The position numbers were made by a program, and so were the translations under genes. A stretch of DNA of 22,205 nt from positions 1-22,205 of IMG/VR virus record IMGVR_UViG_3300012212_000021, one strand, 5' to 3'. Each line of letters opens with the position of its first letter. The first letter of the stretch is position 1. The stretch is from a virus. Shown here in pieces: positions 985 through 16,702 of this stretch. The notes below the pieces were generated by a model that did not search any database, was not told the DNA's origin, and worked only from the letters and a program-made list of their open reading frames with translations.

Positions 985-1788
985 ATGAATAAAAATATCC
1001 TTCCTTATGTTTATAAGTTAGTTCATAAAAATTCAGGGCAGTATTACTTTGGGTACAGAAGCGCTAATAAGATTAAAGCCGAAAAAGATATTGGTTTCCA
1101 TTACTTTACTTCATCGAAAACAATAAAAGATTTAGGCTTCGAAAATTTTGAAGTTTTTATTCTTGCTGAATTCTTTGATAAACGTGATGCATTTGAGTTT
1201 GAAACTCAATTAATTGAGCAGCATCTATCTGATCCATTGAATTTGAATAAAGCAGTAAAAGGTAAACTTTACCCATCAAGAAAAGTAACAACCAAAGAAC
1301 ACCGTGAAAATCTTTCACGTGCGCTTACTGGCAAAAAGCTATCGCCTGAAACTATTGATAAAATAAAAAATACTCGAAAAATTACTATTTCTCAAATGTC
1401 AGATGACGAAAGGAAAAGTAAATGGGGAGAGGCAGGTAAAAAAGCGCAAAAGACGATTTCTCAAATGTCCAACGAGGAACGAAAATTAAAATTTGGAACC
1501 ATGCGCGGTCGAACGCACAGCGCAGAAGTTCGTAAGTCCATTTCTATTAGTAACACCGGTAAATCTCGTTCTGAAGAAGCTAGACGTAAAATGTCAATAA
1601 CAAAGAAAGGAAAAAAGCAATCTCCATCTGCAATAGCAAACAGAACTAAAAATTTTGGTGGTGGTGGGAATCCTAGAGCAATTCCCATAACAGTCAATGG
1701 GACAGAATATTCTTGTAAAAAAGACGCAAGAATTGCTCTAGGGTGGAGTAAAAAAAGACTTAACGAGTATTTAAGATCACCGAATTGA
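985..1788 (+). CDS. GIY-YIG homing endonuclease with NUMOD repeats
   Basis: I place the start at the ATG at 985, after AAGG, which gives 267 residues; an ATG at 922 would begin upstream of the late promoter box. The N-terminal nuclease domain has the GIY-YIG pair as YVY (8-10) and YFG (21-23), the conserved arginine at 25, and a helix with the catalytic glutamate in FEFETQLIEQ. The C-terminal half has helix-turn NUMOD3-like units (TTKEHRENLSRALTGKKLSPE, then HSAEVRKSISISNTGKSRSEE) and ends in a NUMOD1-like segment (TVNGTEYSCKKDARIALGWSKK). Such tails bind the DNA target of I-TevI relatives. The gene is opposite in strand to its neighbours and its last 12 nt overlap the end of the VWA gene, as expected of a selfish insertion. 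Confidence 0.85.
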   Translation: MNKNILPYVYKLVHKNSGQYYFGYRSANKIKAEKDIGFHYFTSSKTIKDLGFENFEVFILAEFFDKRDAFEFETQLIEQHLSDPLNLNKAVKGKLYPSRKVTTKEHRENLSRALTGKKLSPETIDKIKNTRKITISQMSDDERKSKWGEAGKKAQKTISQMSNEERKLKFGTMRGRTHSAEVRKSISISNTGKSRSEEARRKMSITKKGKKQSPSAIANRTKNFGGGGNPRAIPITVNGTEYSCKKDARIALGWSKKRLNEYLRSPN

Positions 1789-2814
1789 TTTATATTCCAC
1801 GCCGACCTCGTCCCAGTACAGAATTTGGCTGCCTTTCTGAACTTTACGGTTGACAGAAGTGGATTGGATGAAGACGTCAAAGTTGCCCAGATCATCAGGC
1901 TTGAGTCGAACGTCGCTATAGGCCGGCAGCCCCAGCATTTGACGTGCGGCATCGCCATAATAGATGGCATTGGTTGCTTTGTCGCGAATGCAAATCTTCT
2001 TGGTCGATTGGACTTTGTCTTCCGACTTTGTCAGCTGATAGAATGCGGCGCCTTTCATCATTGGGCGCCCATTCAGACGGCCTTCAACAAATTCACGAAT
2101 TTGCTTTTCATGCTCTTTTTCAGCTACCGGAAACAGCATGACTTTGCTGCTCACGTCTTCCAGTGCCGCCTTGACATCAGCACTAGTGACGTCTTTCAGA
2201 TTGGCGTAGAAGGTAGCAGTGGATTTCATACCAGTGCTACGACCACTGAAGTAGGAGCGGAAGGCTTCTTGCGACTGAGCGGCGGCTTGAGACATACCGC
2301 GACTGGATTGATCCCATTCCATCACATTGCCTTCAGGGAAGCCCAGCGAGACGAAGTCACGAGCTGCGCCACGAGGAACACGGAATGCAAAGGTCCAGCG
2401 ATCACTTGCTTGGAGACGTTTGACCTTCTGACCCAGTTCCTTACCATAATGGCGCTGTTCGGTTTCTTCACCGTCAGTCGTCACGTAGACTAGGAAGCTT
2501 ACGTCGGGATCATTGTAGTCGGGAACTTGCTCGCAGATGGCGATTGCTTCGTCAACGGAGCGGAAGAGAGGAGTACCGCCACTAGTGCGGTAACGATCGA
2601 GGGGTTTGAGAACTGCGATGGAGGAATTGCGGACGGTGGTGCGAACATCGCCACCACATTCAATGACCGAGACGATAGTGTCTTGGTTTTCAGCGAGGGT
2701 CGCTTCTTTGATTGCGCCGACGGTTTCATTGAAATCGACACGTGCGGCTTCAGCGATGATGCCCATAGAACCAGAGTGGTCACGGACGAAAACGATATAG
2801 TTGCGAAAAGTCAT
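1777..2814 (-). CDS. VWA-domain protein with complete MIDAS motif
   Basis: A 345-residue protein. The N-terminal 200 residues form a von Willebrand factor A domain: strand NYIVFVRDHSGS gives the MIDAS DxSxS (D12, S14, S16), the threonine is T81 in SGGTPLF, and the aspartate is D114 in TTDGEE. Such domains bind a divalent metal and a protein partner. The C-terminal 140 residues (from about 205) are charged and unrecognised. The ATG follows AAAGAG. VWA proteins in large phages have been linked to assembly or host takeover, but no partner is visible here, so its role is open. Both ends abut homing endonuclease genes: a 12-nt convergent overlap at its stop and a 48-nt divergent gap at its start. 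Confidence 0.8.
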   Translation of the reverse strand: MTFRNYIVFVRDHSGSMGIIAEAARVDFNETVGAIKEATLAENQDTIVSVIECGGDVRTTVRNSSIAVLKPLDRYRTSGGTPLFRSVDEAIAICEQVPDYNDPDVSFLVYVTTDGEETEQRHYGKELGQKVKRLQASDRWTFAFRVPRGAARDFVSLGFPEGNVMEWDQSSRGMSQAAAQSQEAFRSYFSGRSTGMKSTATFYANLKDVTSADVKAALEDVSSKVMLFPVAEKEHEKQIREFVEGRLNGRPMMKGAAFYQLTKSEDKVQSTKKICIRDKATNAIYYGDAARQMLGLPAYSDVRLKPDDLGNFDVFIQSTSVNRKVQKGSQILYWDEVGVEYKSIR

Positions 2815-8540: not shown

Positions 8541-8603
8541 GGAACAAAGGATTGAAAGTCAGACGTCAAATGGGATAAATGATAACTGACTTTCTTCGGT
8601 TCC
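8541..8603 (-). ncRNA. P1-P2 RNA motif, hairpin form (copy 1)
   Basis: On the minus strand: P1 GGAAC, CGAA, P2 GAAAGTCAG, loop starting TTATC, P2' CTGACTTTC, AATCCTTT, P1' GTTCC. Both helices pair perfectly. The unpaired CGA, TTATC and CCTTT are shared with the copies at 11,236, 12,682, 15,544, 15,888, 12,765 and 16,548 although the helices differ in sequence. Its 3' end is 5 nt before the 5' end of the CUA-reading tRNA, so it may be a processing or regulatory leader. Confidence 0.65.
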
Positions 8604-11235: not shown

Positions 11236-11300
11236 AATCAACAAAGGAGTGAATCATGGGGATAATCGTAGAAGGATAACCATGATTCGATCGGTTGATT
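11236..11300 (-). ncRNA. P1-P2 RNA motif, hairpin form (copy 2)
   Basis: Minus strand: P1 AATCAAC, CGATC, P2 GAATCATGG, a 20-nt loop starting TTATCCTT, P2' CCATGATTC, ACTCCTTT, P1' GTTGATT. Helices of 7 and 9 bp are perfect. It ends 10 nt before the 5' end of tRNA-Leu(GAG). This is the clearest copy of the motif. Confidence 0.7.
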
Positions 11301-12681: not shown

Positions 12682-12748
12682 TTGACAACAAGTTAGTAGA
12701 TGACGGGTAGGTTCGCAAAAGGATAACCATCATCAATTCGGTTGTCAA
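12682..12748 (-). ncRNA. P1-P2 RNA motif, hairpin form (copy 3)
   Basis: Minus strand: P1 TTGACAAC, CGAATT, P2 GATGATGG, a 20-nt loop starting TTATCCTT, P2' CCGTCATC (one wobble), TACTAACTT, P1' GTTGTCAA. It ends 3 nt before the 5' end of tRNA-Pro. The loop shares TTATCCTT(Y)T(R)CGA with the copy at 11,236. Confidence 0.7.
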
Positions 12749-12764
12749 AACTTAAAAATAGAAA

Positions 12765-12904
12765 TAGAAATTAGAAAGAATAACAAATATGCCATTGGGC
12801 ATTGTCCACCGTAACCATAAGGACAAGTAGGAATCGAACCTACACGGTTTTTATACCATTAAAAGAGATAACCAATAAGCTCCGGTTACTCTTTCTAATT
12901 TCTA
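12765..12904 (-). ncRNA. P1-P2 RNA motif carrying permuted tRNA-like parts (copy 7, no D-arm)
   Basis: P1 is a 20-nt inverted repeat (12885-12904 with 12765-12784; 19 of 20 strict matches, the other a G-T wobble). After P1 come CGGAGC, P2 TTATTGG, then TTATC. Inside follow a TTTT/AAAA hairpin, T-arm GTAGG-TTCGATT-CCTAC, then TTGTCC...GGACAA as an acceptor-like helix closed by a 13-nt loop, P2' CCAATGG, CATATTT and P1'. So the T-arm precedes the 5' acceptor strand. No D-arm can be drawn between acceptor and P2'. Confidence 0.55.
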
Positions 12905-13582: not shown

Positions 13583-13602
13583 TTTAAATCTACTGAAAAC
13601 TG

Positions 13603-13713
13603 GTGAAATCGACTAGGATTCGAACCTAGTTAAGCCAGAGGCGCCGCCTTTACATGGATAACCAATTACTAACGGTTACATGACAACAAAAAGGTGCAAT
13701 CGGAGATTTTCAC
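13603..13713 (-). ncRNA. tRNA-like RNA with the P1-P2 core in normal order
   Basis: The terminal helix is GTGAAA(A)TC/GATTTCAC. Next to it on the 3' side is T-arm CTAGG-TTCGAAT-CCTAG. P2' CCGATTG, then CACCTTTTT, a short GTT...AAC hairpin (13677-13689), CGTTAG, P2 TAATTGG and TTATC give the same conserved core as the permuted copies, but here the core is closed at the P1 end and open at the acceptor end. A variable-arm-like AGGC-GGC-GCCT follows. There is no D-arm and no CCA. It is the topological counterpart of the elements at 12,765 and 15,888. Confidence 0.5.
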
Positions 13714-13807
13714 GGTGGGGTTTCCAACTCCCTCCGACTTCATTCGCGTGAACATCTAGTAGTCCACTACCGATCAATATCGTTACTGATACTTAAAAGT
13801 ATTCTGG

Positions 13808-15543: not shown

Positions 15544-15657
15544 GCAAACAAAAATGTTAGAAGAAGTTGCTCCCCGACTGGAGCTTACCCTTAGCTTGTG
15601 GCTGCGGGATGGAGTCGAACCATGCATCTGTAAGATAATCTTCAAACAGCGGTTTGC
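15544..15657 (-). ncRNA. Permuted tRNA-like gene in the P1-P2 motif (copy 5, with D-arm)
   Basis: P1 GCAAAC/GTTTGC, CGCT, P2 GTTTGAAG/CTTCTAAC (one mismatch), then ATTATC and ATTTTT in the conserved places. Between them, in order: a small ATCT..AGAT hairpin, T-arm ATGG-TTCGACT-CCAT, 3' acceptor strand CCCGCAG, a CACAA loop region, 5' acceptor strand CTAAGGG, then a good D-arm GCTCC-AGTCGG-GGAGC. The acceptor helix has a 2-by-2 internal loop, as in the copy at 16,548. The 3' half thus precedes the 5' half. The element ends 5 nt before tRNA-Gly(TCC). The anticodon cannot be assigned. Confidence 0.6.
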
Positions 15658-15887: not shown

Positions 15888-16021
15888 TGTAATTGATAAG
15901 AACAACAAAAATTGACATCGAGTCAAAGTTGCGCCCAGCATTCAAGAGGAGAATCGAACTCCTAACTCCATTTTCGCAAGAATAGATAACCAATGTCGAG
16001 CAGTTATTCTTATCGATTACA
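15888..16021 (-). ncRNA. P1-P2 RNA motif carrying permuted tRNA-like parts (copy 6, no D-arm)
   Basis: P1 is a 19-nt inverted repeat (16003-16021 with 15888-15906) with one C-A mismatch and one wobble. Then TGCTC, P2 GACATTGG, TTATC, an ATT/AAT hairpin containing CTTGCGAA, T-arm AGGAG-TTCGATT-CTCCT, a weak acceptor-like hairpin (TTG..GC-TGG-GC.CAA), P2' TCGATGTC (wobbles), AATTTTT and P1' GTTGTTC. It starts 3 nt after the encoded CCA of tRNA-Ala(TGC). Confidence 0.5.
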
Positions 16022-16547: not shown

Positions 16548-16702
16548 AAAAGCAACAAAGTAGCGATAACGAAGATTGTCTTTCGACTAGGACCGGTGCG
16601 TCTGCCATTTCCGCCATCACAAAGTTTCCTAAGTGAGAGGGGTTCGAACCCTCACGTCTTTCGACACCTGTTTGAGATAATCATTATCTATCGGTTGCAT
16701 TT
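16548..16702 (-). ncRNA. Permuted Leu-type tRNA gene candidate in the P1-P2 motif (copy 4)
   Basis: Minus-strand order: P1 AAATGCAAC, CGATA, P2 GATAATG, ATTATC, CTCAAACAGG, variable arm TGTC-GAAA-GACG, T-arm GAGGG-TTCGAAC-CCCTC, 3' acceptor TCACTTAG, GAAA, 5' acceptor CTTTGTGA, a D-arm GCG-GAAATGGCAGA-CGC identical in kind to Leu tRNAs, 5' anticodon-stem side CCGGT, a GTC-GAAA-GAC hairpin, P2' CGTTATC, GCTACTTT, P1' GTTGCTTTT. The 3' half of a Leu tRNA thus precedes its 5' half, joined by a GNRA tetraloop. CTCAAAC fits a Leu CAA anticodon loop, but the junction is uncertain. It ends 3 nt before tRNA-Gly(GCC). Confidence 0.65.

What the first reader, a model, noticed from the sequence alone, without database searches (positions are those of the whole stretch)
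16548..16702. Candidate circularly permuted Leu-type tRNA gene
The minus strand reads variable arm, T-arm (GAGGG-TTCGAAC-CCCTC), 3' acceptor strand, GAAA, 5' acceptor strand, Leu D-arm (GCG..CGC with ATGG), 5' anticodon stem. Both halves are individually good Leu-type sequence but in reversed order, and the whole is closed at the anticodon end by P1/P2. Permuted tRNA genes are established in some algae and archaea, where ends are joined after splicing; I know of none described in phages. The acceptor pairs only 6 of 8 positions (CTTTGTGA/TCACTTAG, two T-T mismatches), so a decayed or non-decoding RNA is possible.
Basis: partly seen in the sequence, partly recalled or inferred. Interest (0 to 1): 0.9.

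Follow-up and report, generated by a model that had tools for sequence, protein, structure and literature searches.

The report
Phage Y RNA mimicking leucine tRNA
The reversed tRNA halves are most likely not a scrambled tRNA gene but a small "Y RNA" whose stem fits the ring protein Ro60 and whose body imitates a tRNA, one of several such RNAs in this phage, alongside apparent tRNAs that carry the same stem as an extra arm.

Summary
On the minus strand at 16698-16552, Leu-type tRNA halves lie in reversed order, with the acceptor ends joined by GAAA and the whole closed by helices P1 and P2. The reading as a permuted tRNA gene is not supported. P1/P2 carries the signature of the Ro60-binding stem of Y RNAs: a lower helix with an extra C, an upper helix, then UUAUC. 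Inside it, T-arm, sealed acceptor and D-arm come in the order of bacterial YrlA RNAs, known circularly permuted tRNA mimics. A homolog beside the same tRNA-Gly in a 343-kb phage contig (G006) restores all 8 acceptor pairs but keeps the tetraloop, and that contig encodes a full-length Ro60 (E 9e-104 to Deinococcus Rsr). All five module-bearing contigs of at least 336 kb, and six cultured actinophages with such stems, carry the Ro60 (TROVE) domain. No tRNA-splicing endonuclease or RtcB was found in 13 records. The window holds seven Y-type RNAs, plus a tRNA-Tyr with the same stem in its anticodon arm; about 23 such Y-armed tRNAs across all loci look newer than the flagged element. Limits: Rfam's YrlA model does not score the window RNA; no RNA evidence; Ro60 lies outside this fragment.

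The parts
16552..16698 (-). Y RNA with Leu-type tRNA-like body (the finding)
   Evidence: structure count on five homologs
16694..16698 (-). P1 (lower Ro-stem), 5' strand GCAAC; an extra C, likely the conserved bulge, follows at 16693
   Evidence: bulged C as Ro60 site: PMC4030889 passage
16681..16688 (-). P2 (upper Ro-stem), 5' strand GATAATGA
16676..16680 (-). UUAUC motif after the upper stem
   Evidence: sequence; motif in animal Y RNAs and sbRNAs: PMC4726728, PMC4450293 passages
16667..16671 (-). anticodon-like stem, strand ACAGG (pairs CCGGT 16596-16592; one G-A mismatch)
16656..16665 (-). Leu-like variable-arm hairpin GTC-GAAA-GAC
16637..16653 (-). T-arm
16617..16636 (-). acceptor stem TCACTTAG / GAAA / CTTTGTGA, sealed by the GAAA loop
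16598..16614 (-). D-arm GCG..CGC
16578..16587 (-). small hairpin GTC-GAAA-GAC between anticodon-like stem and P2'
   Evidence: 2 of 3 pairs change on both sides
16552..16572 (-). P2' TCGTTATC, linker GCTACTTT, P1' GTTGC
15889..16020 (-). second Y-type RNA: long P1, T-arm inside, no clear acceptor
15544..15657 (-). third Y-type RNA: T-arm, acceptor-like stem (loop ACAA), D-arm
12765..12904 (-). fourth Y-type RNA: long P1, T-arm and D-arm-like hairpin
12682..12748 (-). short-loop Y-type stem
11236..11300 (-). short-loop Y-type stem
8541..8603 (-). short-loop Y-type stem upstream of a tRNA-Leu
13601..13741 (-). tRNA-Tyr (anticodon GTA, CCA encoded) carrying the Y stem in its anticodon arm (arm 13703-13657)

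Best explanation
It is a phage-encoded Y RNA of the YrlA type. The 5' and 3' ends pair into a two-part stem (P1, an extra C, P2, then UUAUC) that binds the phage's Ro60 (TROVE) ring protein. The loop end of that stem continues into a tRNA-like body in the order anticodon-like stem, variable arm, T-arm, acceptor sealed by GAAA, D-arm. It is transcribed within the tRNA cluster and stays linear, uncircularised and uncharged. It works as a Ro60 ribonucleoprotein: the stem docks on Ro60, and the tRNA-like part gates the ring or tethers partners and tRNA-modifying enzymes, possibly also decoying tRNA-cutting nucleases. Shown here: the stem and its covariation, the body and its conservation, other copies, and co-occurrence with Ro60. 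Inferred: binding, processing and function.
For: Architecture equals the Rfam YrlA consensus (outer stem, T-arm, sealed acceptor, D-arm, outer stem). Lower stem with bulged C and UUAUC at the 5' end of the loop are described Y RNA hallmarks (passages). P1 outside the fixed AAC/GTT, not used for selection in this test: 16 of 35 elements pair at 5 or 6 of 6 positions, against 4.7% in swapped controls. Ro60: PF05731 in 17 of 26 records, including all five module-bearing contigs of at least 336 kb and all six cultured phages in which one search finds the stem; 1 of 14 control genomes. The G006 protein is full-length Ro60, E 9e-104 to 2NVO and 1.2e-95 to 1YVP. The G006 homolog has 39 of 40 pairs, with the acceptor restored to 8 of 8. 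In cellular genomes, 64 matches to the insert pattern, none with both P2 and a T-arm. In GMA2 the YrlA model matches full length.
Against: The YrlA model gives no hit on the window RNA. In the other phages it stays below its cut-off, and it cross-matches ordinary tRNAs (11 of 14 control genomes ring). No Rfam family hits the short-loop stem at 12748-12682. No Ro60 among ten window proteins tested, and five smaller module-bearing fragments lack it too. UUAUC was part of my search patterns, so its apparent universality is biased; the copies in A3Wally, found by similarity, do carry it, but GMA2 reads UUAUU. Kabachok and CcrColossus have Ro60 but show no copies by the first pattern above chance. 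No transcript data.
Confidence: 0.87

Rival explanations
1. A true circularly permuted tRNA gene: the transcript is cut and joined at the anticodon end, RNase P and another nuclease remove GAAA, and a working tRNA results.
For: Permuted order and tRNA halves. Rnl1-type RNA ligase (PF09511) in 5 of 13 records, all five of at least 336 kb; PF09414 ligases in 8 of 13. ARAGORN finds a tRNA in 74 of 260 artificially joined versions of the window element.
Against: Tetraloop kept in 4 of 5 homologs, no CCA, anticodon-like stem mismatch; predicted anticodons vary with the assumed joint; tRNA endonuclease and RtcB 0 of 13 each; all five Leu isoacceptors already encoded; same stem without any tRNA.
Confidence: 0.05
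2. P1/P2 is a small new intron: removed from tRNAs where it is inserted, and producing circles where it flanks the tRNA.
For: 22 candidate inserts followed by a T-arm; 10 of 22 restore a full anticodon arm with U33 and purine 37 when the insert is removed up to TTAT.
Against: Swapped halves restore it in 22-24%, so the dependence across the insert is modest; the stem has the Ro60-binding signature; no catalytic family hit; no endonuclease.
Confidence: 0.04
3. Y RNA as above, but its main job is to be a tRNA decoy that blocks host tRNA-cutting defences rather than to steer Ro60.
For: PMC7790460 proposes that the YrlA tRNA-like domain could competitively inhibit an anticodon nuclease (passage); many different tRNA bodies per phage.
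Against: No nuclease target tested; short-loop copies have no tRNA body.
Confidence: 0.25
4. Two truncated tRNAs that merely abut, decaying.
For: Acceptor 6 of 8 and one anticodon-stem mismatch.
Against: Conserved arrangement in five phage loci with changes on both sides of pairs; P1 and P2 conserved.
Confidence: 0.02

Closest known systems
Bacterial YrlA Y RNA (Rfam RF02553; Salmonella structure 6CU1)
   Same: Ends paired into a Ro-stem; T-arm, sealed acceptor, D-arm in permuted order; partner Ro60/Rsr
   Different: Stem sequence (CCG..GRUUAUC) differs from the Rfam consensus; Leu-type variable arm and extra hairpin; many copies inside a tRNA cluster; no score with the model
Animal Y RNAs and nematode sbRNAs
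   Same: Lower stem with bulged C, upper stem, UUAUC at the 5' end of the loop
   Different: No tRNA-like body; PMC4726728 calls bacterial Y RNAs not homologous to the vertebrate clades (passage)
Permuted tRNA genes of algae and archaea (recalled; mentioned in PMC10085705, passage)
   Same: Order of halves
   Different: Those yield working tRNAs through a circle; here the acceptor is sealed and the splicing enzymes were not found
Introns in Lak phage tRNAs (PMC6784885, passages)
   Same: Small inserts in phage tRNAs of unknown nature
   Different: Lak sequences were not compared here

Membership tests
Y RNA (Ro60-binding) | 5' and 3' ends pair into a stem with lower and upper part | tested here: met
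Y RNA (Ro60-binding) | conserved bulged C in the lower stem | tested here: met
   an extra C follows AAC in the window and its homologs; that it bulges is inferred; its role in binding: PMC4030889
Y RNA (Ro60-binding) | UUAUC after the upper stem (animal type) | tested here: met
   selection by this motif noted; UUAUU in GMA2
Y RNA (Ro60-binding) | Ro60 ortholog in the same genome | tested here: inconclusive
   outside the 22-kb fragment; present in relative G006 and in all five large records
Y RNA (Ro60-binding) | binds Ro60 | not testable with these tools
   needs a binding experiment
YrlA | tRNA-like body: T-arm, sealed acceptor, D-arm in this order inside the Ro-stem | tested here: met
YrlA | match to Rfam RF02553 | tested here: not met
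   no hit on the window RNA; below cut-off elsewhere. Hence described as YrlA-like, not filed in RF02553
YrlA | tRNA-type modifications (D, pseudouridine) | not testable with these tools
   wet experiment; feature from PMC8394870
Circularly permuted tRNA gene | intact tRNA after joining, decodable anticodon | tested here: inconclusive
   ARAGORN positive for many joints with differing anticodons
Circularly permuted tRNA gene | splicing machinery available | tested here: not met
   PF01974 and PF01139 0 of 13 records each; the records may be incomplete

The most novel reading that the evidence does not exclude
These phages carry a whole repertoire of Ro60-binding tRNA derivatives in both topologies: permuted Y RNAs, and otherwise ordinary tRNAs (own acceptor, often CCA, own anticodon) that carry the Ro60-binding stem as an extra arm in the anticodon region. 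The unpermuted Y-armed tRNAs would be the missing link by which a YrlA-type RNA arises from a tRNA through circular permutation, and would tether usable or cleavable tRNAs to Ro60.
Probability: 0.65. Interest if true: 0.8.

Novelty: new variant of a known kind. Interest (0 to 1): 0.6.

Why it matters
It corrects a tempting reading (permuted tRNA gene in a phage) and replaces it with a testable ribonucleoprotein. It shows that phage Y RNAs can occur in many copies within tRNA clusters, are missed by current tRNA and RNA-family models, and carry a Ro-stem signature described for animal Y RNAs. The Y-armed tRNAs offer a concrete route for how Y RNAs came to mimic tRNAs. Cultured actinophages such as A3Wally have the same elements, so it can be tested at the bench.

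Tried and rejected
Permuted tRNA gene and small self-splicing or enzyme-spliced intron were each worked out before Ro60 was noticed; the intron reading guided and was dropped when cultured relatives showed Ro-like proteins beside the elements. Removing the insert and running ARAGORN gave a hit across the joint in 24 of the 29 P2-open candidates examined (30 rows, one skipped for length, grid of 260 joints each); two of those (L228_870, L248_7724; 2 joints each) look spurious, and hits were also obtained with many joints, so this does not fix a splice site. The anticodon-arm restoration test was weak: 13 of 22 against 35% in the wide grid, 10 of 22 against 22-24% in narrower grids. One candidate (L228_870) was dropped from those tests as a misread P1-open element, and L300_414 had its P2' start moved 9 nt by hand. 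The first viral pattern for abutting T-arm and Leu D-arm was not pursued beyond the common scan. Similarity searches of the phages collection with the window element and with L285, L186 or L300 elements found only partial, tRNA-arm-sized matches or nothing. Rfam on the window element and on a short-loop copy found no Y RNA; Rfam on a Phabba copy gave YrlA at E 2.7 only. Alignment A1 used a wrong G006 range and A3 shifted one row; only A2, in which the G005 row is truncated, was counted.

Paper searches for permuted tRNAs, phage tRNA introns and phage Y RNAs. None of the listings or passages seen describes Y-armed tRNAs, but the main Y RNA papers are not in the library.

Full report
What was checked. 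The window is an IMG/VR fragment of 22,205 bases with a tRNA cluster on the minus strand (17 genes by ARAGORN; 18 Rfam tRNA matches). The finding lies between a tRNA interrupted by an ORF (5' half 17464, 3' half down to 16706) and tRNA-Gly (16545-16473). The precise element is 16698-16552: P1 GCAAC/GTTGC, an extra C, P2 GATAATGA/TCGTTATC, then UUAUC; inside, an anticodon-like stem ACAGG/CCGGT with one mismatch, a Leu-like variable hairpin, the T-arm, acceptor strands joined by GAAA, the D-arm, and a second small hairpin.

The closing stem is a recurring module. By eye, and then by script, the same P1/P2 module was found in further places of the window: T-arm-containing copies at 16020-15889, 15657-15544 and 12904-12765, short-loop copies at 12748-12682, 11300-11236 and 8603-8541, and a tRNA-Tyr at 13741-13601 with the module inserted in its anticodon arm (coordinates). 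Pattern scans of viral contigs brought in many more. Of 127 candidates in the loci then held, 111 scored at least 16: 45 have a T-arm inside, 23 are inserts in tRNAs, 31 are short-loop stems and 12 remained unclassified. That set was selected for P1/P2 pairing and is therefore not itself a test.

Tests that do not select for the tested pairing. Among 35 elements chosen by the two conserved strands and a T-arm, the six bases outside AAC/GTT pair at 5 or 6 positions in 16, against 4.7% when strands are swapped between elements. Among 21 matches to the insert pattern, P2 pairs over at least 6 contiguous bases in 11 of the 15 with a T-arm and in 0 of the 6 without one. The same insert pattern in 257 Gb of bacterial and archaeal genomes gave 64 matches, 5 with P2 of at least 6, 1 with a T-arm motif and none with both. 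In 15 records already known to hold the module, the strand-A pattern occurs 99 times and its reversed control 6 times, nearly always on one strand per record.

The homologs. The nearest independent one is in G006 (IMGVR_UViG_3300049001_000044, 343 kb), again directly upstream of a tRNA-Gly. Its acceptor strands TCACCGAA/TTTGGTGA pair 8 of 8 and keep the GAAA loop; 39 of 40 pairs form, against 37 of 40 in the window. Further homologs are in G005, L285 and L279; G005 has a longer acceptor insert and its row was truncated in the counted alignment. Across the five, 88.0% of 184 cells pair, 11 pairs change on both sides and the covariation score is 0.290, against 0.145 in shuffles (0 of 500 as high) and at most 0.098 with slid partners. 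The anticodon-like stem is the weakest multi-pair helix (64% of cells), partly through misalignment of L285 and L279. Folding energies alone are not remarkable.

What the module is. Similarity search with an insert from L298 led to Microbacterium phage A3Wally. Within about 600 bases it has a series of module copies in a variant spelling (GAGCCGA..GGTTATC), including a permuted body with an 8-bp acceptor stem closed by CGC and a Gln-type CTG anticodon arm (read by eye); ARAGORN finds no tRNA there. Relatives include Zooman, Magritte and Trina, which are annotated with Ro-like RNA-binding proteins near the elements. PF05731 (TROVE, the Ro60 domain) was then found in 17 of 26 records: eight of thirteen module-bearing IMG/VR records, including all five of at least 336 kb; all six cultured phages in which one search finds the stem (A3Wally, GMA2, Daubenski, Phabba, Zooman, Trina); Magritte; and also Kabachok and CcrColossus. 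It is absent in Kaldavass, Bajun, DLP_6, XaC1 and five smaller fragments. The G006 protein matches Deinococcus Rsr (9e-104), human RO60 (3.1e-101; species recalled) and Xenopus Ro60 (1.2e-95; species recalled) over nearly its whole length.

Fit to Y RNAs. PMC4030889 (passages) describes the paired ends, the separation into lower and upper stem, and the bulged cytosine as primary Ro60 site, retained in bacterial Y RNAs. PMC4450293 and PMC4726728 (passages) describe UUAUC at the 5' end of the loop in nematode sbRNAs and its presence in vertebrate Y RNAs. PMC8394870 (passages) describes bacterial YrlA: a basal stem holding Rsr/Ro60 and a domain like the D, T and acceptor arms of tRNA. PMC11472068 (passages) reports that bacterial Y RNA 6CU1 superposes on tRNAs as a circular permutation. 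The Rfam YrlA consensus printed against GMA2 shows the same order: stem, T-arm, acceptor sealed by a short loop, D-arm, stem. GMA2 matches it over its full length at 43.1 bits (cut-off 69).

Results against. RF02553 gives no hit on the window RNA; elsewhere all matches are below its cut-off, and 11 of 14 control genomes also ring, because the model resembles tRNA. UUAUC was in my patterns. Ro60 is not among ten window proteins tested. I therefore call the RNA YrlA-like and a probable Y RNA, and do not file it in RF02553.

Why not a permuted tRNA gene. The splicing endonuclease (PF01974) and RtcB (PF01139) were found in 0 of 13 records each. Rnl1-type ligases were found in 5 of 13 and PF09414 ligases in 8 of 13, so ligation is possible in principle; such ligases are described in jumbo phages at large (PMC7824862, passage, which also notes TROVE in a small subset). 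The sealed acceptor, missing CCA and independent existence of the stem speak against a tRNA product.

The inserts. About 23 tRNA-like genes, including the window's tRNA-Tyr, carry the Y stem inside an otherwise normally ordered tRNA, in most cases at the base of the anticodon arm and in some in the anticodon loop. Removing the insert lets ARAGORN recognise tRNAs that it does not see otherwise, but a control with swapped halves shows that the anticodon arm lies mostly on the 3' side, so removal is not proven. The body of L183_1183 (insert) and of L222_5235 (permuted) share a stretch of about 36 bases that differs at only two places (read by eye), which links the two topologies. I found no report of such Y-armed tRNAs in the searches listed; Lak phage tRNA introns (PMC6784885, passages) may or may not be the same thing.

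Prior knowledge that I could not open. Chen et al. 2014, Wang et al. 2018, Sim and Wolin 2018 and Sim et al. 2020 are not held. From memory, Chen et al. report likely Y RNAs near Ro60 in more than 250 bacterial and phage species; if so, phage YrlA-type RNAs as such are known, and what may be new is the number and variety here and the Y-armed tRNAs.

Noticed in passing
window 17464-16706 (-): A tRNA (GGTTCCT..AGGAACC) is split by a 232-aa ORF without its own stop, which reads through the 3' half of the tRNA; no Pfam hit.
   Followed up: partly
window about 10952-10896 (-): Hammerhead-like sequence (CTGATGAG, stem, CGAAAC) between tRNAs, recognised from memory; not reported by Rfam at gathering threshold.
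   Followed up: no
L437 (Gordonia phage GMA2) 4301-4357: Pistol ribozyme above its gathering score directly after tRNA-Trp, with a tmRNA and a YrlA-like RNA just upstream.
   Followed up: no
window 6165-6045 (-): tRNA-like gene with matching acceptor strands, a large insert in the anticodon loop and a second T-arm-like hairpin; it does not carry the Y stem.
   Followed up: no
window 9860-9755, 10842-10765 and 14780-14700 (-): Further T-arm-bearing, oversized or odd tRNA-like structures not called by ARAGORN.
   Followed up: no
L439 (Mycobacterium phage Phabba) 3473 onwards: A tRNA in normal order, annotated tRNA-Ser, appears to sit inside a Y-type stem, i.e. the stem joins its acceptor end.
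   Followed up: partly
L441 (Rhodococcus phage Trina) 3783-4056: An annotated 209-base pseudo-tRNA just upstream of the Ro gene overlaps Y-type RNAs.
   Followed up: partly
L186_1163, L216_11956, L222_10960, L228_381, L269_192 and window 12904-12765: A recurring sub-class, often with very long P1 (up to over 20 bp), in which the T-arm runs directly into a D-arm-like hairpin without an acceptor stem.
   Followed up: partly
window 1777-2814 (-): 345-aa protein that reads like a von Willebrand A domain protein (impression only; no Pfam hit).
   Followed up: no
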